Below are positions 1 to 61,110 of a stretch of 64,000 bases of DNA, in pieces. The number at the start of each line of letters is the position of its first letter. Position 1 is the first letter of the stretch. This stretch comes from Dactylonectria macrodidyma (lineage: Eukaryota > Ascomycota > Sordariomycetes > Hypocreales > Nectriaceae), in assembly GCA_020744425.1 (NCBI GenBank), contig JAGMUV010000014.1, forward strand, positions 186,001 through 250,000, given 5' to 3'. The position numbers were made by a program, and so were the translations under genes. The notes under the pieces are model-generated. The model searched no databases and was not told the origin of the DNA. It worked only from the letters and a program-made list of their open reading frames with translations.

Positions 1-3000
1 CTATCATGTGAACAGGCAGGAAGAATCGCCGGAAGACAGATTCCGCTGGTACAGCTCTGCGTGCTAAGACAGTCATCGGAGGATGAACAAGTCACCACCG
101 TAGATGGTAGACAGAGACCAGCCTCACAAACTTCGCCAGTAGCCGCGCAATCTGCGACAGTCGAGCATGAAGGAATAACTGTTGGAAGACAGACCCCACC
201 AGTGCAAGTCTCCGACTCATCGCAGTCGGTAGATGCCGTACAGACAGTGAGCGTGCGAGGGATGCAAACGCCCAGTCGACAGATGTCATCGCCAGTGCAG
301 TCTGCATCACCTGTGCATATAGGAAGAACAACAGGCAGGCAGACGCCACTGGTACAAGCTTGATCCGCGGCGCAGTCATCGGCTGTCGAACAAGTGTTGA
401 CTTCGACAGGTAGGCAAGTACCTGCCTCACAAGACTCTCCAGTAGAACACTGAGAATCATTGGTGCAAGTTGGGAAAACTGTAGGGAGGCAAATGCCAGC
501 CGTGCAAGATTCCGTGATGGCGCATTGAGAATCATCGGTGCAAGTGTTCAAGACTTCAGGAACACAAACGCCGAGCCTACAGACGCCGTTCTCGCTGACG
601 CAGTCAGAGTCGTCTGTGCAATCCGGCAAGACTGTCGGGAGACAAACGCCGCCGGTGCATGTCTGGCCTGTCGAACAATCGTCCGAAGTCGTGCAGGTGT
701 CGATGGTAGCGGGCAGACAAATACCAGCTTGGCAAGACTCCCCGTTGAGGCAGTCGGTATCAGCCTCGCAGGCAGGGAACAACGTGGGAAGGCAGAAGCT
801 AGCAGTGCAAGTTTGTGACGAAGTGCAGTCATCCGACGTACTGCAAATAGCGAGAGCGCTTGGCAGGCAGACACCTAGACGGCAGACATTACTGCTGGCG
901 CAATCGGTATCAGCCGTACATACCGGAAGATCCGCTGGTAAGCATAGTCCGTTGTTGCAAGTTTGTCCAGTAGTGCAGTCAGTATCAGCAGTGCATGTTG
1001 TGATGCCTGAAGGCAAGCAAGTATTGGACTGGCAAGTCAGGCCTGAAATACAGTCTGAATCTTGAGTGCAGGCAGGGAAGACACTTGCTAGACAGATTCC
1101 AGCCGTGCAAACCTGTCCATCAGAGCATTCGCTGTCCTCCGTGCAAGTGTTGAGATCTCGAGGAACGCAGACACCCAGTCGGCACACCTCGGTCTGATCA
1201 CAGCTTGCGTCATCAGCGCACTGAGGCAGCGTCGATGGAAGACAGACGCCACCAGTGCAGGTCTGAGTCGACAAGCAGTCAGAGTCAACGGAGCAGGTGT
1301 CGAGGGCATCTGGAAGACAGACGCCGCCAGTGCAAACTTCACCAGTACCGCAACCAGCGTTATCAGTGCAGACAGGGAAAACTGTGGGGAGACAGACTCC
1401 AGCAGTACAGGACTGGCCGGTTGCGCAGTCTCCATCAGTCGAACAGAGGGAAATGTCGCGAGGAACACAGACGCCCAGTCGGCAAACATCAGTACCGCTG
1501 GTGCAGTCTGTATCAACTGAACATGTGGGTAGAATAGCTGGCAAGCATACTCCACCAGTACAGGCCTGGCTTGTTGGACAGTCGTCTGTAGTCGTGCAGG
1601 TCGTAATGCCTGAAGGAAGACAGAGACTGGCCTGGCAGACTTGGCCAGTAGCACAGTCCGTGTCAGTAGTACATGCAGGGATGACTTCAGCCAAGCACAG
1701 TCCGCCAGTGCAGACCAGTCCATCTGTACAGTCGTCATCGCCAGTGCAAGTATTTACGACGTTAGGAACACAGACTCCAAGCCGACAAACCTCATCCTCA
1801 CCACAGGAGCTGTCTGTTGTGCAGTCGGGTAAAACAACTGGCAAGCAGACACCACCAGTACACGTGGTCTGGGGAGTTATGCAATCTGTATCTGTCTGGC
1901 AGTTTGTCAAGGTTGATGGGAGACAAACACCGGCAGTACACGTTTGGTCTTGATTGCAATTGCTGTCCGTAGTGCAGGGTGGGAAAACGGCAGGGAAACA
2001 CAGGCCTGCTGTACAGACCTGGTTGGCACCGCAGTCCGGATCCGTTGCGCAAGTCGTGACGACCTCAGGAAGACAAACGTTGAGTCGGCAAACCTGTTCA
2101 CTACCGCAGTCGCCATCGACAGTGCAGACAGGCAAGGCATCAGGAAGGCAGACCCCAGATGTACATGTCTGACCAGTTTCACAGTCAGCATCGTTTTGAC
2201 AGGTGTTTAGGCCTGATGGAAGACAAATACCCGCCAAGCAGGTATCGCCAGCAGCGCAGTTGGTATCGGTGGTGCAGTCAGGGAAGATGGCCAGGCAGAC
2301 TCCGCCTGTACAAGTTTGACCAGTGGAGCAGTCAGAGTCTCCAGTACAGGGAGTCAGAGTCTCGGGGATACAGACTCCGAGTCGACAGATGAGGGTGTCT
2401 CCAATACAGTCGCTATCAACAGAGCAATCAGGCAGGATAGTGGGCAGACAAACACCCGAGGTGCAAGTCTGTCCGTCGGTGCAGGCCGAGTCCTCAGTAC
2501 AGGGCGTCAGGCCCGATGGGAGGCAGGTACCCCCAAGACAAGATTGTCCTTCGTCGCAATCTGTATCGGCCGCACAAGTAGGGAAGATCGTTGGCAAGCA
2601 GATTCCAGCGGTGCAAGATTGGTTCTCGCCACAATCGCTATCCGCGGTACAGGTCGTGAGGGCTTCAGGAATGCAGACTCCAACGCGGCAAACCTCGCCT
2701 TCGCCTGTGCAGTCGGTGTCGATAGCACATGTGAGCAAGGTATCCGGAAGACAGACTCCCGCAGAAGAGCAAGTCTGGCCAGTTGGGCAATCGTTACCTT
2801 CTCCACAGGATTGTAGGCCTGCGGGCAAGCAAGTTCCTGTGAAGCAAGATTGGCCAGTTCCGCATTCGCTATCGTCGGCACAGTCAGGGAAGATCTGAGG
2901 CACACAGATGCCAGCAGTGCAGGCTTGTCCTGTGCCGCAATCTGCGTCCGCAGTACAGACATTAAGAACCTCGGGGATACAAACTCCAAGTCTGCATACC

Positions 3001-18000: not shown

Positions 18001-20880
18001 TCCGAGGTACAGGCAGGCAGAACCACTGGAACACAAACTCCCGCGGTGCATGTCTGATCCTCTGCGCACTCATTTCCAGTTGGACAAAGATCCAAGACAG
18101 CAGGTACACAGAGATTTGCAACACATGACTCGCCAGTCTGGCAGTCGGAGTCACCATCACATGACGGGACCAGTGAAGGTAGGCAGAAGCCAGCTGTGCA
18201 CGCCTCGCCGTCTTGACAATCACTGGCATCTGTGCAAGTTGTGATGAGTTCCGGAAGACATGTGCCAAGAGCTATAGAGCATGCAAAGCCAGTACTGCAA
18301 TCAGAATCGCTGGTGCAGGCAGGCAAAACGGTAGGGATGCAAACGCCTGCAGTGCAAGTTTGATCCTGTGCACACTCAGTTCCCTGCGGACAGACAACCA
18401 AGAGTGAAGGCACACAAAGGCCAGCAACACACTGCTCATCAGTTCCACAACTGGCGTCGCCATCACAAGCAGGGATGAGAGAAGGCAGGCAGAGACCAGC
18501 CGTGCAGGTCTCCCCACTGCTACAATCACTCGTGCCCGAACAGGTGGTGATGACCTCAGGAAGGCAGGTGTTGAGAGCCGTGGAGCATTTGAAGTTGGCG
18601 GCACAATCGGCATCTGATGCGCAAGAGGGCAGGACGGAAGGAACACAAACACCTGCGACACAGGTCTGATCCGAGGTGCATTCATTGTTGTTGGGGCATG
18701 TGTTGAGGACTGATGGGACGCAGAGTCCCGCAACGCAGTCTTCGGAGGTGTCACAGTCGCTGGCAGACTGACAAGATCCAACGATAGTAGGAATGCAGAA
18801 ACCACCTGTGCAGGTTTCGCCCGTGTCGCAAGAAGAAGAGTCTTGGCAAGTTGTGAGGGTCGATGGAATACAGACTCCAAGATCGGAACAAGTCATGCCT
18901 GCACCACAGCTCGCGTCGTTCGTACAACCGGGCAGGATGGCGGGGATACACACACCCAAGACGCAAGTCTGACCGCTTCCGCACCCAGTGCCTAGTGGGC
19001 AAAGAGTGAGGATGTTGGGAACACAGAGCCCTCCCACGCATTTTTCGCTTGTTCCGCACTCCGAATCCCCTGAACATGTGGGAACGACAGTAGCGAGGCA
19101 AAGGCCGGCAACGCAAGACTGGCCTGTACCACAAGCGGCATCGCCTTCGCAGGGAGTGATGATGGTAGGTAGACAAACGCCGAGTACAGAGCATGTCTCT
19201 CCGGTGCCGCAGTCCGCATCGTTTTCACATGCTGGAAGAATAGAAGGAATACACACTCCTGCCGTGCAGCTCTGGCCTGCGCCACATTCGTTGCCTTGAG
19301 GGCAAAGCGTGAGGGTATCGGGAAGACAAAGGCCTGCCACGCAGTTCTCGCCAGTTCCACAATCCGAATCGCCTGTACACGTTGGCACGATTGAATCGAG
19401 GCAGATTCCAGCAGTGCAAGACTGGCCGTCACTACAGTCTGCGACGCCTGTGCATGTGGTTATGATGCTGGGGAGGCATACTCCAAGTACCGAGCATGTC
19501 TGACCAGATGTACACATGGAATCGCTAGTGCAGACTGGCAGGATTGATGGAAGGCAAACACCCAAGGTGCATGTTTGGCCTTGGTCGCATTCAGTTCCCT
19601 GTGGACAAAGAGGAAGCACGTCTGGGACACAGAGGCCGCCAACACAGTTCAGGTCGGTTCCGCAATCAGACGACGTCGAACAGACGGGCAAGATTGCGGG
19701 GAGGCAGAAGCCACCAGTACAGCTACTGCCAGTGGTGCAGTCTGAATCTGTTGTACAGCTAGTGATGGGCTCAGGGAGACAGTATCCCAGAGTTGAACAG
19801 GTGAGGGGAGCAGTGCAGTCGGAATCAGATGTGCAAGCCGGCAGAATAGTAGGAATGCATACACCTGCAGTGCAAGTCTGACCCTCAGAGCATTCGGTAC
19901 CCTGAGGACAGACTGTAAGAACGTCAGGAAGGCAAAGGCCTCCGACGCAGTTGAGGCTATTACCACAATCCGAATCAGCCTGGCAAGTTGAGACAAGCGT
20001 AGGCAAGCAGAAACCTGCTGTGCAGGTGTTGTCACCAGTGCAGTCTGGATCTGTGGTACAGGTTTCAATGACAGTCGGAAGACAGTATCCCAAGACTGAA
20101 CACTGCGTAGAACCTTCACAGTCAGAATCAGTGGTGCAAGGGGGCAAGACGTTGGGAAGACAAGCTCCAGCCCGGCAGGACTGGTCCGCTCCACAATCGC
20201 CATCGCCAGTACAAAGAGGGATATTGGCATCGATGCAAAGTCCCGAGACGCAATTCTCGCCAGTGTCGCAGTCGGTGTTGGTCGAACAGAGGGGCAAGAT
20301 GTCGGGGAGACAGAGTCCAGCAGTGCAAGCCTCAGTGGCGCCGCACTCAGAGGCATCGGCACAGAGGGTGATGACGTTAGGAAGACAATATCCGATAGGC
20401 GAGCATGCAAAAGCAACGCCGCAGTCTGCATCAGTTGTGCAGGTAGGTAGGAGCTGTGGCAGACAAACTCCAGCTTGACAAGCTGCGCCGCCTTGACAGT
20501 CCTGGTCAGTAGTACAAAGAGGAAGTAGACTGGGGAGACAGATGCCTCCGACGCAGTTTTCACCATTGCCACAGTCATCCCCAGTGCTGCAAGTGGGCAC
20601 AAGAGAGGAAGGGACACAAATATTGCCAAGGCAACTGTTATCCGCGGGACAATCGCTATCCGCATCGCAAGTTGCGATGATTGCTGGGAGACAGACTCCA
20701 AGAGTGCAAGTGAAACCATCTCCACATTGATCGACTGCTGTGCACTGATCGAGCACAGAAGGCAGACAAACGCCTGAGGTACAAGTTTGTCCACTAGAGC
20801 ATTCGTCCCCCACAGGACAAGCAGATAGCACATCAGGGAGACAGGTGTTGGCCAGGCAGCTCTGACCAGTGCTACAATCT
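1..20880 (-). repeat. Class F higher-order repeat: four modules per ~303-nt (100-101 aa) unit, ~68 copies
   Basis: One marker module recurs near 268, 568, 870, 1166, 1471 and so on to 6069, then 6349, 6652, 6955, 7258, 7558, 7859, 8160, 8465 and so on to 20672, with mean spacing ~305 nt. Reading one unit (about 7859-8160) gives modules of 25, 25, 25 and 26 residues: one with DQTCTAGFCVPSVLPS, one with CIGGICVPSVLDT, one with PQGTECGDGQTC, and the marker CSTLGVCLPDPITA. Each module has four cysteines. Left of about 6.1 kb the marker is the 25-residue CRLGVC type. The array continues past the window edge. Confidence 0.9.
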
Positions 20881-23800: not shown

Positions 23801-26800
23801 TTGGAGTGCAGGTGCCGGATGTACAAGTCTCTCCAGTTGCACAATCGCTATCAGAGACACAGGCGGGGGAACAGGCTCCAGATACACATGTCTGGCCTGT
23901 ACCGCATTCATCGTCGGTCGTACAACCAGCACTCGGGGTACAGGTGCCAGACACGCAAGTCTCTCCAGATGCACAATCGCTGTCAGCGGCACAGGCTGGA
24001 GAGCAAGCTCCGGACACACAGGTCTGAGTTGAACCACAATCATCATCAGATGTACAGCCTCCCGTGCTTGGAGTACATGTTCCAGAGTTGCAGGTCTCTC
24101 CCGTTGCGCAATCACTATCAAAGGCACAAGGGGGAGAACAAGTTCCAGACACACAGGTCTGGCCGGTACCACAGTCATCGTCGACTGCACACCCAGTGCC
24201 TGGAATGCATGTTCCAGAGGTGCAGGTCTCTCCAGTTGCACAATCGCTATCAGTGGCACAGCCAGTACTCGTAGTACAGGTACCGGAGACACAAGTCTGT
24301 CCAGCAATACACTCATCATCAGTTGTGCAATCGGTGTTGGGGGTACAGACACCAGAGACACAGCTATTTCCGACGTCACAGCCATCGTCAGTCGTACAGC
24401 CTGTGCTCACAGTGCAGATTCCAGAGACACAAGTCTCTCCAGAAATACACTCGTCGTCAGTTGTACAATCGGTATTGGGGGTACAGGTACCAGAGACACA
24501 ACTGTTTCCGATATCACAGTCATCGTCAGTGGTGCAGCCAGTGCCCGCTGTGCATGTTCCAGAAGCACAAGTCTCTCCGGTAGCACAATCAGCATCAGTG
24601 GTGCATGGCGGAGTGCAGACGCCTGACTGGCACGTCTGGCCTGTACCGCAGTCGGTATCCAAGGTGCATCCTGAACCAGATCCAGGTGTGCAAGTTCCCG
24701 AAATGCATGTCTCGCCTGTCTCACACTCGTCATCCGATGTGCATGGGATGTCCACAGTACAGAAGCCAGAGACACAAATAGATCCAGGGTCACAGTCTGC
24801 GTTTTCAATGCACGTACAGGCTCCAGACACACAGGATTGACCCGGCAGACAGTCGCCGTCACTTGAGCAAGCGGGAGGCGGAGTGCAAGTACCGGAGACA
24901 CAGGTTTCACCGTCGCTGCAGTCTGTATCAACGGAGCAGCCGCCGGTCGGAGTTTGGCAAGTTCCTGATGTGCAGACTTGACCTGTTTCACAGTCCGAGT
25001 CAACAGAACAGTCGCCAGTCGACGGTTGGCACGTTCCTGATGTGCAAACTTGGCCGTCAGCACAGTCAGTGTCAACAGAGCAGGAAGTCGCGGGTTGGCA
25101 GGTTCCCGACGTGCAAATCTCTCCGTCTTCGCAGTCCGCATCAACGGAGCAGGTGTTGGCCGGAGGTTGGCAGGTTCCTGATACACAGGTTTCACCTTGA
25201 CCGCAATCGGTATCGACGGAGCAGGAATTCGAGGGCTGGCAAGTTCCCGACGTGCAAATCTGACCATCAGCACAGTCTGTATCGACTGAACAAGAACCTG
25301 ATGGCTGGCAAGTTCCTGATGTGCAAATCTGGCCATCAGCGCAATCCGTATCAACGGAGCAGTCGCCTCCTGTGGAGGGTTGGCATGTTCCCGACGTGCA
25401 AACTTGGCCATCAGCACAGTCCGAGTCGACAGAGCAAGAACCAGATGGCTGACAGGTTCCGGATGCACAAATCTGGCCATCGGCACAATCCGTATCAATG
25501 GAGCAAGCACCCGACGGTTGACAAGTTCCAGACGTGCAAACTTCGCCTTGGCTACAGTCTGCATCCACAGAGCAGTCGCCTCCTGTTGGGGGCTGACACG
25601 TTCCAGACGTGCAAACTTGACCGTCAGCACAGTCACTATCCACAGAGCAGTCGCCTCCTGTTGGGGGCTGACACGTTCCAGACGTGCAAACTTGACCGTC
25701 AGCACAGTCACTATCAACGGAGCAGTCGCCTCCTGTTGGGGGTTGGCATGTTCCGGATGTGCAAACTTGGCCGTCGGCACAGTCACTATCAACGGAGCAG
25801 GAATCCGATGGCTGACAGATTCCAGACATACATACTTCTCCTTGGCTACAGTCCGCATCAACTGAGCAATCGCCTCCTGTTGAAGGTTGGCATGTTCCAG
25901 ATGTGCACACTTGACCGTCGGCACAGTCAGTATCAACGGAGCAGGAATCTGAGGGCTGGCAAGTTCCTGACGTGCAGGTCTCGCCGTCGCCACAGTCCGT
26001 ATCGACGGAACAGTCATCTGGAGGTTGGCATGTCCCAGAAACGCAGATATCGCCATTGCTGCAGTCGGTGTCCACAGAGCAACCGCCGCTAGTCGGCTGA
26101 CAGTTTCCGGAAATACAAATTTCGTCGGAGTTGCAATCAGTGTCGACAGAGCAGCCGCCTGATGGCTGACAGACTCCTGATACGCATGTCTCGCCAGACT
26201 GACAATCGGTGTCAACTGAGCAGTCGTTAACGGGCGAGATTTGACAGGTCCCTGACACGCAGGTCTCGCCAGAAGCACAGTCGGTATCAACTGAGCAATC
26301 GTTTCCAGATGAGGTTTGACATGTTCCTGACACGCAAGTCTCGCCAGCAGCGCAATCTGTGTCGACTGAACAATCGGTTCCTGCAGGGGTTTGGCAAGTT
26401 CCTGATACACAAGTCTGGCCAGACTCACAATCGGTGTCAACCGAGCAGTCGGGCCCTGTGGGTGGTTGGCAAGTTCCTGCTACGCAGGTCTCTCCAGAAG
26501 CGCAATCTGTGTCAACTGAACAATCGGTTCCTGCAGGTAGTTGACATGTCCCTGATACACAAGTCTCGTCATCTTCGCAGTCCGTGTCAACTGTGCAATC
26601 AGTTCCGGCGGGTGGTTGACATGTCCCTGATACGCAGGTCTCACCATCCTCACAGTCCGTGTCAACTGTACAATCGGTTCCTGCAGGTGGTTGACAAGTC
26701 CCTGCGACGCAGGTCTCTCCCGAAGCACAGTCCGTATCAACTGAACAGTCGGTCCCCGTGGGTGGTTGACAAGTTCCTGCTACGCAATTCTCGCCTGAAG

Positions 26801-29800
26801 CACAGTCCGTGTCGACAGAGCAATCAGTCCCTGAGGGCGGTTGACAGGTTCCTGCGACGCAAGTCTCTCCAGAAGCACAATCAGTGTCAACTGAACAACC
26901 GGCTCCCGCAGGAGGTTGACAGACTCCGGCTTCACATGTCTGGCCGCTGCCACAATCTGAGTCCACGGTGCAACCAGCTGATGGCTGGCAAGAACCAGAG
27001 ACACAAATTTCGTTTTCAGCACAGTCGGTGTCAACTGAGCAATCGGTTACAGCGATGCAAATACCAGCGATGACATTGCATGTTTCCAAAATGTTGCAAT
27101 CAGTGTCAGCAAAGCATGCAGGGGTGCAAATTCCAGCAGAACAAGTCTGACCACTGCCGCAATCTTCATCGCCGGTGCAGTTCGGGGGAGGTGTACACGT
27201 TCCAGATACGCAAGTTGAACCGTCGCTACAGTCGGTGTCAACAGAGCAACCTTCTGAGGGTTGACAGGTTCCAGACACGCATGTCGATCCGTCAGCACAG
27301 TCAGTGTCGACGGAGCAACCACTTGGAGGCTGGCAGGTCCCCGATTCGCATGTGCCGCCATTAGTACAGTCAGAATCGGTAGAGCAGCCGGCTGGGGGCT
27401 GACAGGTTCCAGATACACAAGTCTCGCCGTCAGTGCAATCGGTATCAACAGAACAGCCGGCCGGGGGTTGGCATGTTCCGGAGACGCATGTTGAGCCGTC
27501 CGCACAGTCAGTATCGGTAGAGCAGCCAGCTGGTGGTTGGCATGTCCCAGATACGCATGTTGAGCCGTCAGTGCAATCGGTATCTATCGAGCAACCGGCT
27601 GGGGGTTGACATGTTCCAGATACACAAGTCTCGCCGTCGGCGCAGTCAGTATCTGTAGAGCAGCCGGTCGAGGGTTGGCATACTCCAGATACACAAGTTG
27701 AACCGTCAGTGCAGTCATCATCCACAGTGCAGCCTGCCGGGGGTTGACAAGTGCCAGAGACACAAGTTGATCCGCCAGTGCAATCGTCGTCCACGGCGCA
27801 ACCTGCTGGAGGCTGGCAAGTGCCAGATACACATGTTTCTCCGTTGCTGCAGTCTGAATCAAGGGAGCAGCCAGCTGGAGGTTGACATGTGCCAGATACG
27901 CAAGTCGAACCGTCAGTACAATCATCATCCACAGCGCAGCCAGCTGGAGGCTGACATGTGCCGGATACACATGTTTCTCCGTTGCTGCAGTCTGAATCGA
28001 GGGAGCACCCAGCCGGAGGTTGGCAGGTGCCAGATACACAAGTTTCGCCGTCGGCACAGTCGGTGTCAGCCGTACAGTCCGTTCCAGGTATACAGATTCC
28101 AGAAGAATTGCACGTTTCCTCCTCACTGCAATCCGTATCGGATGTGCAGGGAGGGTTGCAAACGCCAGATTCACAGAGTTGACCAGTGCCGCAATCAAAG
28201 TCAACTGAACAACCACCAGTCGAGGGCTGACAGCTTCCTGATACGCACGTTTCTCCGTCGCCACAGTCGGTGTCGGTAGAACAACCCGCGGGCGGTTGGC
28301 AGGTTCCTGATACACAGACATCGCCGTTGCTGCAATCAGTATCAATAGAGCATCCTGCGGGTAGTTGACATGTTCCGGATTGGCACGTCTCACCACCACT
28401 GCAATCGCTGTCAGTAGAACAGCTTGCGGGAGGTTGGCAAGTTCCTGACTGGCACGTCTCGCCATTGCTACAGTCAGAGTCAACTGAACAATCGCCTCCT
28501 GCTGGCGGTTGGCAGGTTCCTGATACACAGACATCGCCGTTGCTGCAATCAGTATCAATAGAGCATCCTGGGGGTGGTTGACAAGTTCCGGATTGGCATG
28601 TCTCGCTGCCACTGCAATCGCTGTCGGTGGAACAGCCTGCGGGAGGTTGGCAAGTTCCCGATTCGCAAGTCTCGCCATTGCTACAGTCAGAGTCAACGGA
28701 ACAATCACTTCCTGTCGGTGGCTGACAGACACCTGACACGCATGTGCCGCCGTTGTTGCAATCAGTATCAACGGAGCAGCCTGCGTGTGGTTGGCAGGTT
28801 CCTGATTGACACGTCTCGCCGCTGCTGCAGTCGCTATCAACTGTGCAGCCAGCCGGAGGTGTCTGACAGGTTCCCGATTGACACGTCTCGCCATTGCTGC
28901 AGTCGCTGTCAAGTGTGCAGCCAGGCGGGGATTGACAGGTTCCAGACTGACATATCTCGCCGCTATTGCAGTCGCTATCGACTGCGCAGCCTGTTGGAGC
29001 CTGACAGGTTCCTGATTGACATATCTCGCCATTGCTACAATCGCTGTCAACTGTGCAGCCTGTTGGAGCCTGACAGGTTCCTGATTGACATATCTCGCCA
29101 TTGCTACAATCGCTGTCAACTGTGCAGCCGGCTGGGGCTTGACAAGTTCCGGACTGACACGTCTCGCCGTCATTGCAGTCGCTGTCCACTGTGCAACCAG
29201 CCGGGGCTTGGCAAGTTCCTGATTGACAAGTCTCGCCGCTATTACAGTCGCTATCGACTGAGCAGCCAGCCGGGGCTTGACAAGTTCCTGACTCGCAGGT
29301 CTCGCCGTCGTTGCAGTCACTGTCGACTGTGCAGCCAGCAGGGGCTTGACAAATTCCTGACTCGCAGGTCTCGCCATCGTTACAGTCACTGTCCACTGTA
29401 CAACCAGCCGGGACTTGACAAGTTCCAGACTGACACGTCTCACCGCTATTGCAATCGCTGTCGACTGTACAACCAGCCGGGACTTGACAAGTTCCAGACT
29501 GACACGTCTCACCGCTGTTGCAATCGGAATCGACTGTACAATCACCGCCGCTTGTAGGCTGGCAGCTACCCGATACACAAATCTGGTCTGTATCGCAGTC
29601 GGTATCAACAGTACATCCAGTAGGTTGGCAGGTTCCAGAAACGCAGGACTCGTTGATGTCGCAATCGTCGTCAACTGAGCATGTACCGCCATTCGAGGGC
29701 TGGCAGATTCCAGAAACACATGTTTCTCCGTCAGCACATTCATCATCGGATGAACAGCCGGTGCCAGCAGTGCAGATACCGTTAGAGGCACACGACTCAT

Positions 29801-32800
29801 CAGTGTCACAGTCGGAATCGGACACACACGCGGGTGTGCAGACGCCAGCATCACAGGTCTGTTGGGCACCGCAGTCGGTATCAACTGTGCAGCCGCCTGC
29901 TGGTGGTTGACAGGTTCCAGAGGTGCAAATATCACCATTGCTACAATCTGAATCGACTGTGCAACTTCCGCCTGATGGAGGTTGACAGGTTCCAGAGGTG
30001 CAAACATCACCATTGCTACAATCGGAGTCAGTTGTACAGCTTCCGGCTGGTGGTTGACACGTTCCAGATGTGCAAACTTCGCCGTTGCTGCAATCTTCAT
30101 CGACCGAACATCCTCCAGCTAGAGGTTGACATGTTCCAGATATGCAAACATCGCCGTTGGTACAATCGGAATCAACTGTGCATCCTCCGGCTGGGGGTTG
30201 ACATGTTCCAGATGTGCAAATATCGCCATTGCTACAGTCTGAATCAGTTGCACAGCTATCACCGGGGGGTTGACAAGTCCCAGATATGCAGACGTCGCCG
30301 TTGCTACAATCGGAATCAACTGTACATCCTCCAGCTGGGGGTTGGCACGTTCCAGATGTACAAACGTCACCGTTGCTGCAATCTTCATCAACCGAACACC
30401 CGCCAGCCGGAGGTTGGCAAGTGCCTGAGACACAAGTAGCACCATCGGTACAATCTTCATCAGCGGAACAACCACTCGTCGGAGGCTGGCATGTGCCTGA
30501 TACACAAGTCGCGCCGTCGGTGCAATCAGTATCGACCGAGCAGCCTGGTGCAGGTTGGCAGAATAAATCAACGCATACTTCGCCATTGCCGCAGTCAGTA
30601 TCAACAGAACACCCAGTCAAGCAAACACCTGATACACAGGTGGCACCGTCGGTACAGTCATCATCAACCGAGCAGCCACCAGTCGGAGGTTGACAAACCC
30701 CGGAGGTGCAAACGTCTCCACCTGTGCAGTCCGTATCAACTGAACAACTGCCAGTGGGAGGTTGGCAAGTCCCAGAGGTACAGACATTTCCATCAGTACA
30801 ATCGGTATCATCTGAGCAACTGCCTGTTGGAGGCTGGCAAGTCCCAGATGTGCAAACATTTCCATCCGTGCAGTCTGTGTCAACTGTGCAGCCTGCTGGA
30901 GGTTGACAGACCCCAGAAACACAAGTATCGCCGTTACTGCAGTCAGTGTCGACAGAGCAACCGCTAGAGGGAGGTTGGCAGGTTCCAGATGTGCAGATGT
31001 TTCCATCCGTGCAGTCGGTATCCACGGAGCAACCTGCTGGGGGTTGGCAAGTTCCGGATACACAAGTTGAACCTTCAGTGCAATCGCCATCTACAGAGCA
31101 TTCGTTGCCACTTGATGGCTGGCATGTGCCTGATACACAAGTCTCATCGGTTCCACAGTCTTCATCGCCAGCACATTCAGTTCCAGCAATGCAAATTCCA
31201 GAAGCATTGCAAATCTCGTCAGTACCGCAGTCTGTGTCAGAGGAGCATGCTGGAGTGCAAGTGCCAGATTGGCAAGTCTGAGTGCTACCGCAATCATCAT
31301 CTGTAGCGCAACCTGCCGGGGGTTGGCAGGTTCCTGATACACATGTCTCACCGCTTGCACAATCAGTATCGACAGAGCAGCCGGTTGAGGGCTGACAAGT
31401 TCCTGATACACAAGTGTTGCCGGTATCACAATCGATGTCGGTAGTACAGGTGTTGCCTGTAGCAGGTTCACAGCTTCCTGATGTGCAGATTTCTCCCTGG
31501 CCGCAGTCCGCATCAACGGAGCAGCTGGCTGAGGGTTGGCAAGTTCCTGATACGCAAGTGTCACCGTTGTTACAATCGGTGTCAACACTGCAGTCACCAC
31601 CTGTGGTAGGTTGGCACGTTCCAGAAACGCAAGACTCGTTGGTGCCGCAATCGGCATCATCAGTGCAGTCACCTCCTGTGACGGGCTGGCAGGTTCCAGA
31701 GACGCAGGACTCATTGGTCCCGCAATCGGTGTCAACAGAGCAACCGCCACCTGTGGATGGCTGACAGGTTCCTGAGACACACGTGTCGCCAACGTCGCAG
31801 TCATCATCAACAGTGCATCCGCTACCACTTATACAGATGCCGTTAGAGTCGCAAGACTCTCCAGTAGCGCAGTCTGAATCAGATGAGCATGAGGGTGTGC
31901 AAGCACCAGAGACACATGTCTGAGTGCTGCCGCAGTCCGAATCGACCGAGCAGCCACCAGGTTGCTCACAAATTCCCGCGACGCAAGTTTCCCCGGTGCC
32001 ACAGTCAGCATCAACAGAGCATCCTCCGACAGTTGTGGGCTGGCAGGCGCCAGAGACACAGACCTCGTTAGTACCGCAGTCAGTATCGACAGAGCAGCCA
32101 CCTGAGGGCTGACAAGTTCCAGAGATGCAAGATTCATCAGAACCACAATCAGAGTCGACAGTGCAATCGCCACCGCCAACAATGGGTTGACAAGCACCGT
32201 TTTCACAGGTTTCGTCCGTGCCACAATCGCTATCGACAGAACAGGCTGAAGTCGAGGGCTGACAAGCCCCAGATACGCATGTCTCTCCGGCGCTACAATC
32301 ACTATCCACTGAGCAATCGGTAGTGGAAGGCTGGCAAGTACCCGAAACGCAGGTCTCGCCAGTGGCGCAGTCCTCGTCAACAGCGCAGCTACCAGTTGTG
32401 GGTTGACAGGTTCCAGAGACACAAGACTGATCAGTTTCACAATCGCTGTCCACTGTGCAGCCGCCAGTTGTGGGTTGGCAGGTTCCAGAGACGCAAGTTT
32501 GGTCAGTGCCACAATCACTATCAACGGAACAGCCGCCATTCACAGCCTGGCAAGTGCCTGAGACACATGTCTCGTCGGTTCCGCAGTCGCTGTCGACAGA
32601 GCAGTCGCCTCCATTTGAAGGCTGGCAGGTTCCTGACACGCAAGTCTCATCACTTCCGCAGTCAGAATCAACCGAGCAATCACCTCCCGCAGATGGCTGG
32701 CAGGTGCCGGATACACATGTTTGATCGGCGGCGCAGTCTGAATCGACAGAACAGCTACCTGCTGAAGTTGTTTGACAAGTTCCGGATACACAGGTTTGAT

Positions 32801-35800
32801 CAGTATCGCAATCAGCATCAACGGAGCAGCCTTGGCTTGGCTGACAAGTTCCCGATACACAAGTCTCTCCGGCGGCGCAGTCGCTATCGACGGCGCATTC
32901 ACCTCCAGTCACAGGCTGACAAGTGCCAGAGACACAGCTCTCGCCATCGCTACAGTCATCGTCAACTGTACAGCTGGTGGAAGTTTGACAGGTTCCTGAG
33001 ACGCAAATCTCGCCGGCTTCGCAATCGGCGTCGGCTGAGCAACCGCCAGATGCTTGACAAGTGCCCGATACACAAATCTCATTGTCAGCGCAATCGGTGT
33101 CGGCGGAGCAGGGAACATCAACGATGCAGACCCCGGAAGAATGGCATGTTTCTTCAGAGGCACAGTCCTGATCGGAAGAGCATGGAGGGGTGCAGACGTT
33201 GGCGACACAAGTCTGGCCGGTGCCGCAGTCATCATCGGTAGAGCAACCGCCTGCTGACGGTTGGCAAGATCCTGATATACAAGTCTCGCCAACGCCGCAA
33301 TCAGCATCAGCAGAGCAACCGCTGCTTGGTGGCTGGCATGAGCCTGATATGCAAGTCTCACCAGTGCCGCAGTCGCTATCAGTCGAACAACCAGAGGGTT
33401 GACACGTGCCAGCGACACAAATCTCATCAGTACCGCAGTCGTCATCGACAGAGCAATCCCCGCCACTCGCGGGCTGGCAAGAGCCTGAGACGCAAATCTC
33501 TCCGTTATTGCAGTCGTTGTCGACAGAGCAATCTCCCCCACTCGCGGGCTGGCAAGAGCCTGAGACGCAAGTCTCTCCGGTACTGCAGTCGGCATCAACA
33601 GAGCAGCCTCCTCCTGGTATGACAGGTTGACAAGTCCCAGATACGCAAAACTCGCCAGTATTGCAGTCGCCGTCAACAGAGCAGCCTGTTGGTGTGGCAG
33701 GTTGACAGGTCCCAGATACACAAGTCTCATCAGCACCGCAGTCACTGTCGACAGAGCAATCTCCTCCACTTGCGGGTTGACAAGAGCCTGATACACAAAT
33801 TTGGCCGCTGCTGCAATCATCATCAACGGAACAATCTCCTCCAGTTGTGGGTTGGCAAGTACCCGATATACAGGTTTCGCCGCTGCCGCAGTCGCCATCC
33901 ACAGAACAACTGCCGCCTGGGGCAGGTTGGCAAGTTCCTGATACACAAGTCTCGTCGACACCACAATCGCTGTCTACTGAACAGCTGTTAGGCAAGGGCT
34001 CACACACTCCGGAATTACAGGTCTCTCCGTCTGCACATTCATCGTCTGAGGTGCAAGGCGTGCCGACGATACAAATTCCAGAAGTGCATATCCCTCCATT
34101 GAGGCAGTGCGTATCGAGAGGGCAGGTACAGATTCCGGATTCACAGACAAAACCTGAGGCGCAATCACTGTCTGATGTACACCCAGTTTGGGGAGTGCAA
34201 GTGCCCGATACACAGGTCTCGCCTGTGCTGCAGTCACCATCAACAGAACAGCTGCCTCCCGGATCTGGTTGACATGTCCCCGACACGCAGATCTCGCCCG
34301 TGTCACAGTCACCATTGACGGAACAGGTGCCTCCTGACGTTGGTTGACATGTTCCTGATACGCAAATCTCGCCTGTTCCACAGTCGCCGTCAACGGAACA
34401 GCTGCCTCCACTCGAGGGTTGGCAAGTCCCAGAAACGCAGGTCTCATCTGCAGCGCAGTCGCTATCGGTAGAACAGCTACCTCCAGTCGAGGGTTGGCAT
34501 GTTCCGGAAACACAGGTCTCGTCGGTGCCGCAATCATTATTGGTAGAACAGCCACCTCCATTCGCAGGTTGACAGGTTCCGGAAACACAAGTTTCGTCGG
34601 TGCCACAGTCGCTATCAGTAGAACAATCGCCTCCCGAAGACGGCTGACAGGTACCAGAAACACATGTCTCGTCCGTGAGGCAGTCGCTGTCAGTAGAACA
34701 GCTTCCTCCAGATGAAGGCTGGCAGGCTCCGGATATACAAGCCTCGCCAGCATCGCAATCAGCGTCAACGGAGCAAGTTCCCCCAGTTGGTGGCTGACAA
34801 GTTCCTCCGACGCAGACCTCGTTGGTGCCGCAGTCTCCATCGACGGAGCAAGCGCCTCCGGTCGAAGGCTGGCAAACCCCGTCTTGACAAGTCTCGTCGG
34901 TACCGCAATCGCCGTCGTTGATGCAAGCAGTCAGGACTTGACATGTTCCAGATACACACGTTTCACCGACATCGCAGTCGCTGTCAGTAGAGCAGTCACT
35001 GCCACCGTTGACAGGTTGGCAAGTGCCAGAAACACAAGTCTGACCGGTGCCGCAGTCGGCATCAACAGAGCAATCGCCTCCAGTCGAAGGCTGACATACT
35101 CCAGCTTCACAAGTCTCGTCGGTACCACAATCACTATCGGCGGTGCAAGCGGTCGGAACTTGACATGTTCCAGATACACACGTTTCACCGGCGTCGCAGT
35201 CGCTGTCGGTAGAGCAATCGTTGCCGCTATTGACAGGTTGGCAAGTGCCAGAAACACAGGTCTCGCCCGTGCCACAGTCAGCATCAACAGAGCAGCTTCC
35301 AGTCGAAGGCTGGCACGTTCCGGATACACAAATCTCGCTGGAGTCGCAATCGGTGTCAACTGAGCAAGCACCTCCAGTTGACGGCTGACATGTTCCTGAT
35401 ACACATGTCTCGTCGGTACCGCAATCCGCATCAACGGAGCAGCCACCGCCAATCGTCGAAGGTTGGCAGACTCCAGAGATACAGACCTCGTCGTCTGCAC
35501 AATCAGCGTCGACGGAGCAAGCACCACCAACTGTAGGTTCACATGTGCCGGATACGCAAATCTCAAACTCTCCGCAGTCAGCATCAGAGCCGCAGGGGGT
35601 TTCAGAAGTGCAGGTCGAAGAGACGCAGCTCTCGCCCTCGGCGCACTGATCGCTTGAGGTGCAGCCAGATGGGCTGCAAGAGCCGGACACACAACTCTGT
35701 CCGGTAGGGCATTGGCTACTAGATGTGCAGCCTCCAGAGGCAGGTGTGCAAGCCCCAGACACGCAGGTTTCGCCAGTAGGACAGTCTTTGTCAAGGGCGC

Positions 35801-38800
35801 ATCCAGATGAAGTGCAGGTTCCAGACACACAAGTCTCTCCACTGTTGCAATCATCGCTGGACGTACATTCATCTGGCGTGCAAACTCCTGAGACGCAGCT
35901 CTCACCTGTGCCGCACTGGGAGCTTGATGTGCATCCAGACGGTGTGCAAGTACCATCGACACAGCTCTCCGACGAGGCACATTGATCGCTAGAAGTGCAG
36001 CCAGAACCAGGGACACACACTCCATTCTCGCAGGTCTCGCCAGCATCACAGTTCGCGCTGGAAGTACATCCCAGTGCACACTGTCCATTTTGGCAAGTTT
36101 GACCATCGCCGCACTCGCTGTTGGCTGCACAGGGAACTGGCACACAGATTCCGGCTTCGCAAGTCTCATTCTCAGCACATTCGTCGTTTGATGTGCAAAG
36201 GATTTCAACAACGCAGATGCCGCCAGAGCATTTGAATCCAGATTCACAGGCCTCGCTGTCCACGCAGGGGGTGACACAGCTTTGCTGCTGACAGATCTGT
36301 CCGTCTGTACACTGGGCGTCGGTAGTACATTCTGGCGCGGCAACACAACTGCCAGCCTGACAAACCTGTCCATCAGAACATTCAGCGTCAGCAGTGCACG
36401 CTGGTGCGGCAACACAACTTCCAGACTGACAGACCTGTCCGTCAGCACAGTCGGCGTCAGTCGTGCATACTGGCGCGGCAACACAACTTCCAGACAGACA
36501 GACCTGTCCGTCTGTACAGTCGGTGTCAGTCGTGCACGTTGGTGCAGCAACACAACTCCCATCCTGACAGAGCTGTCCATCCGTGCACTGGGCGTCAGTC
36601 GTACACTCTGGCGCGGCAACACAGCTTCCGGCCTGGCAGACCTGTCCGCCCGTACATTGAGCGTCAGTCGTACATTCCGGTGCTTCAACGCAGCTCCCAG
36701 CCTGGCAGACACGTCCAGGCTGGCATTGGGAATCTATTTGGCAGTTGGGGGTAACGCAAGCTCCATTCTCGCAGACCTGACCATCGTCACATTGGTCGGC
36801 GGTCGTACAGGAGCCAACGACACACACTCCCGCCACACAAATCTCACCAACGGGGCAGTTGTTGTTAGTTCCACATACGGTGAAGCATTGTCCTGCGGAG
36901 CAGATCTGACCGGTGCTGCACTGGGCATTTGTCTGACATTCGGGGCCAGTAACGCAGGCGCCGTTCACACATGACTGACCAGATTCGCAGTCACTGTCAA
37001 CCGAGCACGAGGGAACGCAAGCTCCGTCCTGGCAGATCTCGTTTGCACCGCAGTTTTCATCTGCCGTGCATGGGGAGGTAGGGGCGGTGCAGGTTCCATC
37101 TTCGCAAGTCTCACCAGCAGGGCAGTCGGCATTGGTATTACATCCTGAAATACACTCATTGTTCTGGCAGATCTGGCCGACGTCACACTCGTTGTCAGAT
37201 GCACAATCGCCCGAGGTGCAAATTCCAGATTGACAGCTGCCTCCGAGTTCGCAGTCATCATCTGTAGCGCAATTGCTAACACATTTTCCAGATTCGCAGA
37301 CTTTGTTGAGACCACAGTCATCGTCTGAAGTGCATCGGGGGGTGACACAAGCTCCAGCCTGACAAACCTGGTCAGTGGCACATTGGCTGTCTGTGGTACA
37401 TCCAGTAGGGGATGTAACACAAACGCCCGACTGACAGGTTTGGCCGGCTGCACACTCGCTATTTGTGGTGCATCCAGTCGGAGCAGTAACACAGACACCA
37501 GCCTGGCAGGTTTGACCCGCGGCACATTGGCTGTCTGTAGTGCATCCATTGGTAGTTGGAACACAGGCGCCGGACTGGCACGTCTCGCCAGCGCCACAGT
37601 CGTCGTTCTGGGTACATATGGTCTGGCATCTTCCGTCTTGACAAATTTGACCAAGATCGCAGTCATCGTTCATTGTGCATCCAGCTCCAGCGACGCAGGT
37701 TCCGGACTGGCAAATCTCGTTGGTAGCACAGTCAGCGTCGGATGAACATTCATCGACGACACAAACTCCATCCTGACAAGACTGACCAGTGCCGCAATCA
37801 TCCTCTGTCGTGCATGGGCGATCAGTACAGGTTCCATCTATGCACTGCTGGCTTTCCAGGCACTCGTCATCACGGTTGCATCCACCCGAGATACAGATTC
37901 CGTCCTGACAGGTGCCATCCGGGCAAAGATTGTCTTCCGAGCATTCTGTGACACAGTTTCCCGATTGACAGATCTGCCCAGGGGAACACTGACTATCCGA
38001 GGTACATGCAGTCGGGTTGACAACACAGAGACCTCCAGTGCAAACCTGGTTCGTGGCACAATCGGTGTTGGTGGAGCATGGCTTTGTGATACAGACTCCG
38101 TCTTGGCATATCTGGGTCGCAGAACAGTCGTTGTTAGTGGTACAAGCTGGCGCCGTGACACAAGCTCCGTTCGAACAAACCTGTCCTGAGTCGCAGTCCG
38201 AGTTCTGGGTACAAGCTGGTGGTGTTGTAACGCAAGCTCCGTTCGAACATACTTGTCCCGAACCACAATCTGAGTTCTGAGTGCAAGTTGGTGGCGTTGT
38301 GACGCAAGCGCCGTTCGAACACACTTGTCCTGGACCACAATCTGAGTTCTGGGTGCACGCTGATGGATTTGTGACGCAAGCTCCATTAGAACAGACCTGG
38401 CCCGAGCCGCAGTCCGAGTTCTGAGTGCAAGCTGGTGGTGTTGTCACACAAGCACCATTGGAACATACTTGACCTGATCCACAGTCCGAATTCTGAGTGC
38501 AAGCTGGTGGTGTTGTGACGCAAGCTCCGTTTGAGCAAATCTGCCCAGGGCCGCAGTCTGAGTTCTGAGAGCAGGTCGGGTTGCCACCAACACAAGCCCC
38601 ATTCACACACCTCTGTCCCGCGGGACAATGGTTATCCTGGGTGCAGATACCCGGGGCTATAGCCACACAGACGCCGTCTACGCAAGTCTCGTCGTCGTCG
38701 CATCCGTTGTCATTAGTGCAGTCTTCGCCTGAGACGCAAATGCCGCCATTGCAAATCTGCTGACCATTGCAGTCAGTCGCATCCTCGCAGGCAGGCTTGC

Positions 38801-41800
38801 AAGTGGTTCCACTGCAAATTTGGTTAAGCGGGCAGTCGGTATTGATACCACATTGGACACAAACGCTGTTTAGGCAGAGCAAGACGCCGGGACAGTCTGA
38901 GTTGTCGGTGCATCCAGTCGGCGATGTGACACATCTGCCATTTTCGCAAACTTGACCGAGTATACAGTCGGAAGACGTGCTGCATCCTGCCACACAAATT
39001 CCATTCGTGCAAATGTTGCCAGTACCACAGTCTGAGTTGACGGAGCATGTGCCAATCGGCGATGTAACACAGCTTCCATCTTGACACACCTGGCCCAATG
39101 TGCAGTCAGAAGATGTGCTGCATCCTGCCACGCAAAGGCCATTCCTGCAAATGTTGCCGGTGCCGCAATCTGAATTGGCAGAGCATGTCCCGATCGGCGT
39201 GATACAACGGCCGTCCTGACAAACCTGGCCTGCCGCACAATCGGAAGCCGTGCTGCATCCTAGCACGCAAAGGCCATTCCTGCAAATGCTGCCGGTGCCG
39301 CAGTCTGAATTGGCAGAGCATGCTCCGGTCGGCGATGTGATACAGCGGCCATTTTGACAAACCTGGCCCGCTCTACAATCGGAAGCCGTGCTGCATCCTG
39401 GCAGACAAATGCCATTCCTGCAGGTCCCGCCAACGCCACAGTCGGAGTTGAACAGACATGTAGTGGGGAGACCAACGCATAAGCCGTGGGAACAAATCAA
39501 GTTGGCAGGGCAATCGGAGTTTCTCGAACATTTGCTCGACGGAGGAGGCACACAAGTGTTATCCTCACAACTGTCCTCGGCAAGGCAGTCCAAATCACTA
39601 TTACACGTCGTAACACATTCGCCCGACTGGCAAGTGCTAGGCTCGGTGCAATCGGCGTCGCTAGAACAGCCTCCGGAGGTGTTGGGGACACAAGTGCCAT
39701 CCTCGCAGATTGCGTTGTCGCAGTCTACATCGTCTGTGCAGTCCTGTCCTGCCACGCAGAGGCCGCCTTCGCAGATAAGAACGCCGTCGCAGTCAACAGT
39801 TCGAGCACACTCAGCTACACAGCTGCCATCGTTGCAAACCTCGCTGGCGGCGCATTGGGCATCGGAGGTACATTGTGAGTTATTACCGCCGCCGCCGTTG
39901 TTGCCGCCGTTGTTGCCGCCGTTGTTGCCATTGCCGTCGCCGCCGTCGCCGTCACCATCACCATCGCCGCTGCCACTGCCGTCGATGCCGGTACAATAGT
40001 CGAACAAACAGGTCTGGCCAGTCGGACAAATCATGCCGTCGCAGTTGGTAGGGTCACCCAGTTCGACACAGTTCTGGAGAACGCAGACGTTGTTCGGAGG
40101 GCAGTCCGCACCGGATGCAGTACAACCAGTGGCCTTGACGATGGGGGCGCAGACACCGTCGACGCAAGCTTCGTTAGTTGGGCACGCTTGCCCCTGTTGG
40201 CGCGCGAAGAATCGGAGCAGGCGGCTTGAAGAGGCACCACATGTTGAGGGATCTGAAACAGGAACGCACTGGTCGTTGACGCAGAGAGTATTGGAAGCGC
40301 AACTAGGGCTGCACGCGGAGGAGCTGCCTTGGTTGCTTCCGCCATCACTCCCATTGTCACTCCCGTTGTCACTCCCATTGTCACTTCCATCATCGCTCCC
40401 ATCAGACGGCCCTGAGGTCCCTTGGTCGCCGCCGTTGCCGGAAGAACCTGAGGAGGTCTGTTCAGGGGTTTGACCGTCATCACTCCCATTATCACTTCCG
40501 TCATCACTCCCATTATCACTTCCGTCATCACTCCCATCAGATGATCCCGAGGTTCCTTGGTTGCCACCGCTATCCCCGGAGGAATCTGAGGAAGTCTGTT
40601 CGGGTGTCTGGCCATCATTTACGGAGCTGCCTTGGTTGCTTTGGTCACCGCTTCCGTCATTGCTGCCATCAGATGATCCTGAGGTTCCCTGATCGCCACC
40701 GCTGCCGTCGGAAGATTGATTGGAAGTCTGTTCGGGTAGTTGGCCGTCATTTACGGAACTACCTTGGTTGCTTTGGCCATCGCTTCCATCGTCGCTGCCA
40801 TCAGATGATCCCGAGGTTCCTTGGTCGCCGCTGTTGCCGTTAGAGGAATCTGAAGAAGTCTGTTCTGGTGTCTGGCCGTCATCGACGGAGCTGCCTTGGC
40901 CGTTCTGGCTAGCACCACCATCATTGCTGCCATCAGATGATCCTGAGGTTCCCTGATCGCCACCGCTGCTGTCGGAAGATTGATTGGAAGTCTGTTCGGG
41001 TAGTTGGCCGTCGTTTACGGAACTACCTTGGCCGCTCTGGTCATCACCACCATCATTGCTTCCGTTAGATGATCCCGAGGTTCCTTGGTCGCCGCCGCTG
41101 CCCCCGGAGGAACCTGAGGAAGTCTGTTCAGGTGTCTGATCGTTATTCACAGAGCTGCCTTGGCCGCTTTGACCATCACCTCCATCATTACTCCCATCAG
41201 ATGATCCTGAGGTTCCTTGATCACCGCCACTGCCCACAGCAGAGCTCTGTTCCGGTGCTTGGCCGTTGTTAGCCGCTTGAGTCTCGTCGGAACCTTGGCC
41301 AAGGGTCGTAGTAATCGTAGTAGTAACCGTAGTAACTGTAGTTTCACCAGCGCCGTTGATGATTTCGACAACGGTGGTGACGACTTCTACAACAGTAGTG
41401 AAAACCTGTTCGACGACGGTATTTCCTCCTCCACCGCCACCTTGTTGACCGAGAGTTCCTTCGCTGGACTCGCCGTTGTTACCTCGAACGCCGGTCGTGG
41501 ACGGGGGGACTTGGCCATTATTGTTAGCTCCGCCAGTAGAAGCAGCTCCGCCGTCGCCTCCATTGTCGCCTCCAACCTCACCGCGGCGAGTACTGGTGAG
41601 TCCATCGTTGTTATCACCGACAGCTGTGCTCCCAGGAGTCGTGCTTCCCGGAATCCGTGAGTTTCCTGTAGACCCGGCGTTATCGTCGGGAGGAGTACTA
41701 CTAGCAGAATCGTCGGTGGAGCAAAACGTGAGGCCTGGAGGCGGCGGTCGGCGATCCCAAAGGTGGTTTACACAGACTCCAGTGACACAAACCTGGGACT

Positions 41801-42762: not shown

Positions 42763-42768
42763 TATATA
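42763..42768 (-). promoter_or_regulatory. Putative TATA box of the giant gene
   Basis: TATATA lies 89 bp upstream of the ATG at 42674 in an otherwise mixed sequence, at a distance typical of a core promoter with a short leader. No other clear core element was seen in 42.68-43.2 kb. Confidence 0.4.
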
Positions 42769-61105: not shown

Positions 61106-61110
61106 GCAGC

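What the first reader, a model, noticed from the sequence alone, without database searches (positions are those of the whole stretch)
1..42674. A single intronless open frame of at least 14,224 codons
The sequence shows one phase open from the ATG at 42674 to the window edge, with no complete ORF of 60 or more codons in that phase. Sampled translation at the right end, 37 kb, 20.9 kb, 8 kb and 0.3 kb stays in the Cys-module pattern. An uninterrupted coding run of this length is exceptional for a fungus, where only the largest NRPS/PKS genes compare, and the product would be among the largest known secreted fungal proteins. Its family is not one I recognise.
Basis: partly seen in the sequence, partly recalled or inferred. 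Interest (0 to 1): 0.92.

Follow-up and report, generated by a model that had tools for sequence, protein, structure and literature searches.

The report
Giant cysteine-rich secreted fungal protein
One uninterrupted fungal gene encodes a 19,312-residue, 1.9-megadalton, probably secreted protein built from about 767 small cysteine-knotted units, which looks old and carefully maintained and may be an extracellular fibre.

Summary
The frame from the ATG at 42674 runs off the window and ends at C6:170736 of the window's own contig: 19,312 codons, no internal stop. Predicted product: 1.90 MDa, pI 4.05, 3,092 Cys (16%), about 767 four-Cys modules (consensus CTTDSDCGTGQTCVSGTC), 746 distinct. The fungus is probably Dactylonectria macrodidyma, named from a neighbouring paralog.

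Coding evidence is strong: synonymous sites between neighbouring repeats are near saturation while replacements lag, and the 680 modules of zones A and B hold exactly 2,720 Cys. No exact DNA repeat reaches 80 bp, so misassembly is unlikely. A 1,503-codon paralog 55 kb away has the same zone order with 43 modules.

Family: Stig1-like head, then DUF7107/Dickkopf_N modules. They also resemble Dumpy DPY modules, myxobacterial Cys repeats and squash inhibitors, but several small-knot families match, so no single likeness is specific. Best explanation: a secreted, acidic, disulfide-stapled fibre or tether. Function is inferred; no transcript or protein evidence. Not the longest fungal protein reported: a Trichoderma synthetase has 21,879 aa (PMC8512731).

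The parts
1..42674 (-). Giant open reading frame, codons 1-14,224 of 19,312; continues left of the window to C6:170736 (the window is C6:186001-250000)
   Evidence: 0 stops in the window part and none up to the terminal TGA
41769..42674 (-). N-terminal part, residues 1-302: signal-peptide-like start (by eye, no predictor), then 8 Stig1-like modules with 11-12-residue linkers
   Evidence: PF04885 71.4 bits against cut-off 24.1; module list; homologous to the paralog's N-domain
40314..41768 (-). Low-complexity linker rich in Ser, Gly, Asp and Asn, residues 303-787
   Evidence: The 486-residue gap between modules; 132/264-bp tandem repeats in the DNA
39810..40313 (-). A few modules with a second Gly/Asn/Asp-rich linker, residues 788-955
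21177..39809 (-). Zone A: 266 four-Cys modules, variable linkers of mostly 3-8 residues, residues 956-7166
   Evidence: 1,064 Cys = 4 x 266; PF23416 in 43 of 43 eight-module windows scanned
20745..21176 (-). First junction cassette, residues 7167-7310: modules with an extra C-x-C ending around an ordinary module
   Evidence: Aligns with the second junction at residues about 17756-17900 and with paralog sequence
1..20744 (-). Zone B, window part (from residue 7311; whole zone to residue 17749): 414 modules with 7-residue linkers (L/V/I)-P-x-x-(L/I/F)-x-x in a four-module super-repeat of about 101 residues
   Evidence: 405 of 414 linkers have 7 residues; 1,656 Cys = 4 x 414; identity peaks at lags 4, 8, 12
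42763..42768 (-). TATA-like hexamer 94 bases upstream of the ATG (possible core promoter)
   Evidence: Pattern match only

Best explanation
One intronless gene encodes a secreted protein of 19,312 residues: signal peptide, Stig1-like head, flexible Ser/Gly/Asp linker, then about 750 disulfide-stapled hairpin modules in three zones separated by junction cassettes. Each module is most likely a cystine-stabilised beta-hairpin with disulfides 1-3 and 2-4, by analogy with squash inhibitors. Regular linkers, few Lys/Arg and aromatic residues and a large acidic excess in zones A and B would give a protease-resistant, polyanionic filament, about 1-2 micrometres long at an assumed 1.5-2.5 nm per module (my estimate, not measured). 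It most likely works as an extracellular tether, adhesive stalk or sheath fibre on hyphae or spores. SHOWN: the frame, modules, zones, selection on the protein, the plan shared with the paralog. INFERRED: one transcript, secretion, disulfide pairing, fibre shape, role.
For: Continuous frame. Protein-level selection: 100 of 100 position-chosen zone-B pairs and 263 of 264 zone-A adjacent-module pairs have pN<pS, median pS 0.75-0.76; 48-62% of differences fall on codon position 3 in each of ten segments, the last four segments resting on only 45-255 differences. 680 modules with exactly 2,720 Cys. 405 of 414 zone-B linkers of 7 residues. 190 Lys+Arg against 2,472 Asp+Glu. Same zone order in the paralog. 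Predicted hairpin in each module. Zone-A windows match the Dumpy DPY module in 35 of 43; [quoted passage not shown] Module matches TIGR04201 over its cut-off; [quoted passage not shown]
Against: No transcript, protein or phenotype evidence. No signal-peptide predictor run. Models have pTM 0.24 and 0.28, so rod shape is not supported by structure prediction. Zone-A windows also match EB (43 of 43), a conotoxin family (30 of 43) and WAP (16 of 43), so the Dumpy likeness is not specific. No EGF, ZP or PA14 domain listed in the parts scanned. Zone C is hardly acidic (41 Asp+Glu, 24 Lys+Arg). Lys/Arg poverty could be compositional drift.
Confidence: 0.5

Rival explanations
1. A multi-headed binding or protease-inhibitor scaffold: modules resembling squash inhibitors each present a loop (LPxxLPx in zone B) that binds proteases, a glycan or a host protein; the giant is a multivalent sponge or decoy, not a mechanical fibre.
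For: Single-module profile matches squash trypsin inhibitor 1mct_I, E 0.0033; zone-B model has squash inhibitors among its matches (1w7z, TMt 0.75, rmsd 2.4, probability 0.89, but E 0.73); Pfam Squash in 4 of 42 zone-B windows; conserved linker, Pro at position 2 in 93% of 7-residue linkers.
Against: No match with E <= 0.001 in the fold search. The module lacks two of the six knottin Cys. The residue aligned by eye with the inhibitor's reactive position is mostly Ser/Thr/Glu/Asp, not Arg/Lys (inference). The DNA-free likeness is shared by other small knots.
Confidence: 0.12
2. A secreted matrix, gel or coat component that is cross-linked or cut after secretion, so that length as such is not the function (bulk disulfide-rich, protease-resistant material).
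For: Extreme composition: 16% Cys, few Lys/Arg/aromatics; many repeats.
Against: Exact retention of four Cys per module and of linker length in zone B and ordered zones shared with the paralog suggest a defined architecture.
Confidence: 0.16
3. A precursor cut into many small Cys-rich peptides, like Kex2-processed repeat proteins.
For: Hundreds of similar small modules after a signal-peptide-like start.
Against: Only 4 dibasic ([KR]R) sites in 19,312 residues, so no Kex2-type site between modules; other proteases not excluded.
Confidence: 0.05
4. The frame holds several genes or transcripts (for example breaks at the two junction cassettes), and no cell makes the whole chain.
For: Junction cassettes separate the zones, and the paralog ends at such a cassette; no RNA evidence of one transcript.
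Against: No in-frame stop at the junctions; only 12 Met codons in 19,312, 1 of them in the first junction stretch and 1 in the second, and no new signal peptide seen there by eye.
Confidence: 0.12
5. Artefact: a non-coding repeat or assembly error that happens to be open.
For: Other frames of the repeats also have few stops in places, and long secondary frames occur.
Against: Selection signal throughout, 746 of 767 modules distinct, no exact repeat of 80 bp or more.
Confidence: 0.02

Closest known systems
Paralog, frame C6:110759-115288, public model P0001 EDB81DRAFT_762333 (Dactylonectria macrodidyma)
   Same: Stig1-like N-domain (50% identity over residues 58-199), low-complexity linker, A-type modules, junction, B-type modules with LP-linkers, terminal cassette, in the same order
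   Different: 1,503 codons and 43 modules against 19,312 and 767; less Lys/Arg-poor (63 of 1,503); no zone C
DUF7107 (PF23416), Dickkopf_N (PF04706), Stig1 (PF04885)
   Same: Segments score over the curated cut-offs
   Different: Domains of about 50-85 positions; here hundreds of copies in one chain. No paper in the library names DUF7107
Drosophila Dumpy (DPY module PF21164)
   Same: Giant extracellular protein with small four-Cys modules; 35 of 43 zone-A windows match PF21164 at E <= 0.01; 2.5 MDa and filaments of at least 1 um predicted (PMC4574473, passages)
   Different: Dumpy's EGF repeats and ZP domain (recalled) were not found in the parts scanned; other four-Cys families match equally often or more often
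Myxobacterial Cys-rich repeats (TIGR04201) and TraA
   Same: Zone-A segment 103.7 bits and C-terminal segment 86.4 bits against cut-off 25; [quoted passage not shown]
   Different: The TraA model itself scores 21.1 against a cut-off of 750; no PA14 domain listed; only 20 of 42 zone-B windows match TIGR04201 at E <= 0.01, the first of them under the cut-off
Giant fungal synthetases such as Tex1_Ta of Trichoderma atroviride
   Same: Comparable length in the same fungal order (order recalled): 21,879 aa (PMC8512731, passages)
   Different: Enzyme assembly lines; no synthetase domain listed in the parts scanned here
Giant proteins of Omnitrophota
   Different: Bacterial; described there with 42 predicted transmembrane helices; no sequence comparison made here

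Membership tests
DUF7107 (PF23416) | Score over the curated cut-off (24.6 bits) | tested here: met
   40.4, 284.7 and 305.3 bits in three segments, 281.1 and 117.3 in two more; first member of each window set 57.9 and 54.2 bits
Dickkopf_N (PF04706) | Score over the curated cut-off (25 bits) | tested here: met
   140 and 62.7 bits, 50.3, but 23.3, under the cut-off, for the first zone-A window; not listed for the N-terminal 400 or C-terminal 1,554 residues
Dickkopf proteins proper | C-terminal colipase-like Cys domain (recalled) | tested here: inconclusive
   None listed in the segments scanned, which do not cover the whole chain
Stig1 (PF04885) | Score over the curated cut-off (24.1 bits) | tested here: met
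   71.4 bits in residues 1-400; 5 matches in the genome, in the giant and the paralog only
Dumpy | DPY module over the cut-off (27 bits) | tested here: met
   36.2 bits in the first zone-A window; 35 of 43 windows at E <= 0.01. Not specific: EB 43 of 43
Dumpy | ZP domain near the C-terminus (recalled) | tested here: not met
   C-terminal 1,554 residues: only PF23416 listed
Dumpy | EGF domains (recalled) | tested here: inconclusive
   None listed in the segments scanned, not the whole chain
TraA (NF033759) | Score over the family cut-off (750 bits) | tested here: not met
   21.1 bits
Myxo_Cys_RPT (TIGR04201) | Score over the cut-off (25 bits) | tested here: met
   103.7 bits (a zone-A segment) and 86.4 bits (C-terminal segment); not met by the first zone-B window, 16.9 bits
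Squash inhibitors / knottins | Six Cys, three interlocked disulfides (recalled) | tested here: not met
   Modules have four Cys; profile match to 1mct_I covers four of the six
Kex2-processed repeat proteins | Dibasic sites between repeats (recalled) | tested here: not met
   4 [KR]R sites in 19,312 residues
GPI-anchored fungal adhesins | C-terminal GPI attachment signal | not testable with these tools
   No predictor; by eye the tail resembles the junction module
Giant NRPS/PKS | Adenylation, condensation or ketosynthase domains | tested here: not met
   None listed in the segments scanned; the module pattern fills the chain

The most novel reading that the evidence does not exclude
Zone B is one molecule displaying about 400 copies of a squash-inhibitor-like binding loop on a fixed 25-residue spacing with a four-module super-repeat: a giant multi-headed inhibitor or lectin-like scaffold kept at this size over long evolutionary time, with no fungal counterpart known to me.
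Probability: 0.1. Interest if true: 0.92.

Novelty: new variant of a known kind. Interest (0 to 1): 0.75.

Why it matters
If expressed as one chain it would be among the longest fungal proteins and, as far as I could search, the only giant fungal one built of Cys modules. It raises testable questions: how a fungus translates, oxidises (up to 1,546 disulfides) and secretes a 1.9-MDa chain; why every zone-A and zone-B Cys is kept while synonymous sites are nearly saturated; and whether fungi evolved a micrometre-scale single-molecule extracellular fibre. Tryptic proteomics would hardly see it (190 Lys+Arg, about one per 100 residues), which may be why such proteins go unnoticed.

Tried and rejected
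Module types: my first regular-expression parse (766 modules) gave three spacing types. That was a register artefact; the scored parse (767 modules) shows one module, 619 of 767 with spacing 5-5-4, and different linkers. The lag analysis used the old register; lags count modules, so the periods stand.

Selection: windows chosen by protein identity bias pN downwards, so I rely on position-chosen pairs. Neighbours need not be nearest relatives: ungapped comparison at in-frame shifts up to 30 kb found at most 85% DNA identity over 400 bp. Zone A does hold some recent duplicates (19 of 264 adjacent modules with pS<0.5, one pair with pS 0).

RIP as the cause of fast divergence: four-fold sites differ more by transversion than by transition (zone B 1,061 against 767; zone A 628 against 523), and RIP indices resemble the flanks. 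Rejected as main cause.

Protein database (3 of 3 searches): the paralog found only its own record among 5,123 candidates. Giant N-domain, candidates of 5,500-17,500 aa: none of 168 passed. Module region, same lengths: 3 of 733 passed, none with a name; I read two (P0003, P0004), giants with modules scattered among other sequence that look prokaryotic to me; P0005 was not read. A model of 19,312 aa lies outside the band, so whether this gene is already annotated, whole or in pieces of other sizes, is untested. No fungal genome other than G000 could be searched. The DUF7107 search of the genome scored 150 of 643 candidates.

Rows dropped: alignment A1 used 42 of 47 zone-B windows, A2 43 of 45 zone-A windows, A3 37 of 62 modules; windows in A1 and A2 overlap by half.

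Full report
OBSERVATION. The minus-strand frame from the ATG at 42674 has 14,224 codons without a stop up to the window edge. The window is C6:186001-250000 of a 77.3-Mb, 77-contig genome. Joined with its own flanks the frame ends at C6:170736-170738: 19,312 codons, 57.9 kb. The other five frames carry 118 to 1,059 stops, and about 508 would be expected in the true frame from its base frequencies. The open frame begins 12 codons before the ATG. A TATA-like hexamer lies at -94; seven ATGs lie in the 400 bases upstream, two of them (-97, -82) near that hexamer.

ORGANISM. The neighbouring 1,510-codon frame matches P0001, 'EDB81DRAFT_762333 [Dactylonectria macrodidyma]', at 100% identity over 98% of the query, on a contig of 1,626,943 bases; C6 is listed as 1,620,000. 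I take the species from that label alone. The draft genome of another isolate is 58 Mb (PMC4400431, whole text) against 77.3 Mb here; not resolved. A TCP-1 chaperonin frame lies about 29 kb beyond the gene's start, which speaks against a dispensable region (inference).

ANATOMY. Product: 1,901.6 kDa, pI 4.05, 3,092 Cys, 2,472 Asp+Glu, 190 Lys+Arg, 3 Trp, 12 Met. The scored parse gives 767 four-Cys modules, 746 distinct, and 24 Cys outside modules: in the head and linker, both junctions, one place in zone C and the tail. Order: signal-peptide-like start; Stig1-like head; Ser/Gly/Asp/Asn linker; zone A, 266 modules; junction; zone B, 414 modules, 405 of 414 linkers of exactly 7 residues; second junction; zone C, with 2-3-residue linkers; Cys-containing tail. 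Zone B has a four-module super-repeat: in five stretches identity at lag 4 is 0.56-0.65 against 0.40-0.45 at lags 1-3; in the last stretch (modules 620-690) it is weaker, 0.50 against 0.40-0.41. Zone C has a three-module period (0.51 against 0.45-0.46 at lags 1, 2 and 4).

SELECTION AND AGE. Pairs chosen by position only: zone B four-module neighbours, n=100, median identity 0.57, pS 0.75, pN 0.29, pN<pS in 100, none with pS<0.5; zone A blocks, n=65, pS 0.76, pN 0.23, none with pS<0.5; zone A single neighbours, n=264, pN<pS in 263, 19 with pS<0.5; zone C, n=16, pS 0.71, pN 0.34, 1 with pS<0.5. At columns with the same residue pS is 0.75-0.79, against 0.853 for random synonymous codons. Four-fold sites agree in 1,088 of 2,916 (zone B) and 814 of 1,965 (zone A), against 28% expected at saturation. 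In pairs chosen by DNA identity (n=432) 48-62% of differences lie on codon position 3 in each of ten segments; the last four segments have only 255, 45, 90 and 86 differences. Zones A and B hold 1,064 and 1,656 Cys, exactly four per module; the zone-C stretch counted holds 232 for 57 modules, four more than that. I conclude that the zone-B array is old, has not recently expanded and is kept module by module, while residues outside the framework change freely. Age in years is not estimated.

ASSEMBLY. The gene has repeated 60-mers but no repeated 80-mer, so repeat collapse or expansion is unlikely. I have no reads. A study of Arabidopsis-root fungi used PacBio reads and transcript-supported annotation (PMC8664821, passages), but 'macrodidyma' does not occur in its main text, so I cannot say the contig comes from it.

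PARALOG. C6:110759-115288 has 1,503 codons from its ATG and 43 parsed modules, in the order head, linkers, A-type modules, junction, B-type modules, terminal cassette. The N-domains share 50% identity over residues 58-199. The giant's second junction aligns with the paralog's last 113 residues. The common ancestor therefore probably had A, junction and B already (inference). The 136 DUF7107 matches reported (150 of 643 candidates scored), the 5 Stig1 matches and the 95 matches of the C-terminal segment lie in these two genes; two weak N-domain matches lie on C56 and C76. So two genes is a lower bound.

STRUCTURE. AlphaFold2 on alignments of the protein's own repeats gives a short helical turn (in most modules) and a hairpin per module; mean pLDDT 78.3 (zone A; two of the five models only 35.5 and 33.3) and 69.6 (zone B), pTM 0.24 and 0.28. 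The module fold is moderately supported, the arrangement of modules is not. No fold match reached E 0.001. A single-module profile matches squash inhibitor 1mct_I at E 0.0033; the four Cys fall on Cys 2, 3, 5 and 6 of the knottin, hence the predicted pairing 1-3, 2-4 (inference; knottin numbering and pairing recalled).

RELATIVES. Bacterial and archaeal arrays exist: 4 of 22 pattern-matched stretches in prokaryote genomes encode relatives, among them a Woesearchaeota frame of 1,643 aa with 49 modules and a proteobacterial one of 2,190 aa with 45; the two others gave 9 and 0 by the same pattern. Family scans covered five segments (5,154 residues) and 85 overlapping eight-module windows, not the whole chain. 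Besides DUF7107 and Dickkopf_N, which match every window, zone A matches EB (43 of 43), DUF5885 (37), Dumpy_DPY (35), Toxin_19 (30) and WAP (16 of 43); zone B matches DUF5885 (24 of 42), EB (11) and Squash (4). Such short Cys patterns are shared by many families, so none of these likenesses proves descent.

FUNCTION. I favour an extracellular fibre or tether: regular linkers, intact Cys framework under selection, Lys/Arg-poor acidic composition, and likeness in module and size to Dumpy (PMC4574473, passages) and in module to the repeat region of TraA (PMC3820747, passages). These are likenesses, not membership: the ZP domain of Dumpy and the TraA model were tested and not met. Rivals are listed. 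Nothing here tests expression, secretion or shape.

NOVELTY. The modules are of known kinds; a fungal protein with some 767 of them is not in the papers I could find (in one search Stig1 appears only in a list of domains of a nematode-trapping fungus, PMC3828140, passages). Subscription papers are largely absent from that library. The length is exceeded by a reported fungal synthetase of 21,879 aa.

Noticed in passing
G000:C6:110759-115288 (left of the window); P0001: The public model of the paralog (1,872 aa) agrees with the open frame for most of its length, then departs near the end into sequence without Cys modules; probably a prediction that fuses two genes.
   Followed up: partly
window 20890-22899 (+) and minus-strand frame 21170-24406: Long secondary frames (670 and 1,079 codons) overlap the giant in other phases; I read them as by-products of its repeats.
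   Followed up: no
window 57217-62466 (-): Four long minus-strand frames (454, 272, 331 and 451 codons) in one phase, some separated by a single stop or a short gap, with no Pfam match; a spliced gene or antisense frames.
   Followed up: partly
window 52037-53113 (-); 63355-63900 (-): Fatty-acid desaturase frame with DUF3474; RabGAP-TBC frame.
   Followed up: no
G000:C6:101491-166067 (left of the window): Copia-like polymerase frame, NACHT-type frames, pectate lyase with CBM_1, Spherulin4, ankyrin-repeat and zinc-cluster regulator frames near the paralog and the giant's 3' end.
   Followed up: no
L053 and L054: A Woesearchaeota frame (1,643 aa, 49 modules) and a proteobacterial frame (2,190 aa, 45 modules) carry similar four-Cys arrays, by descent or convergence.
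   Followed up: partly
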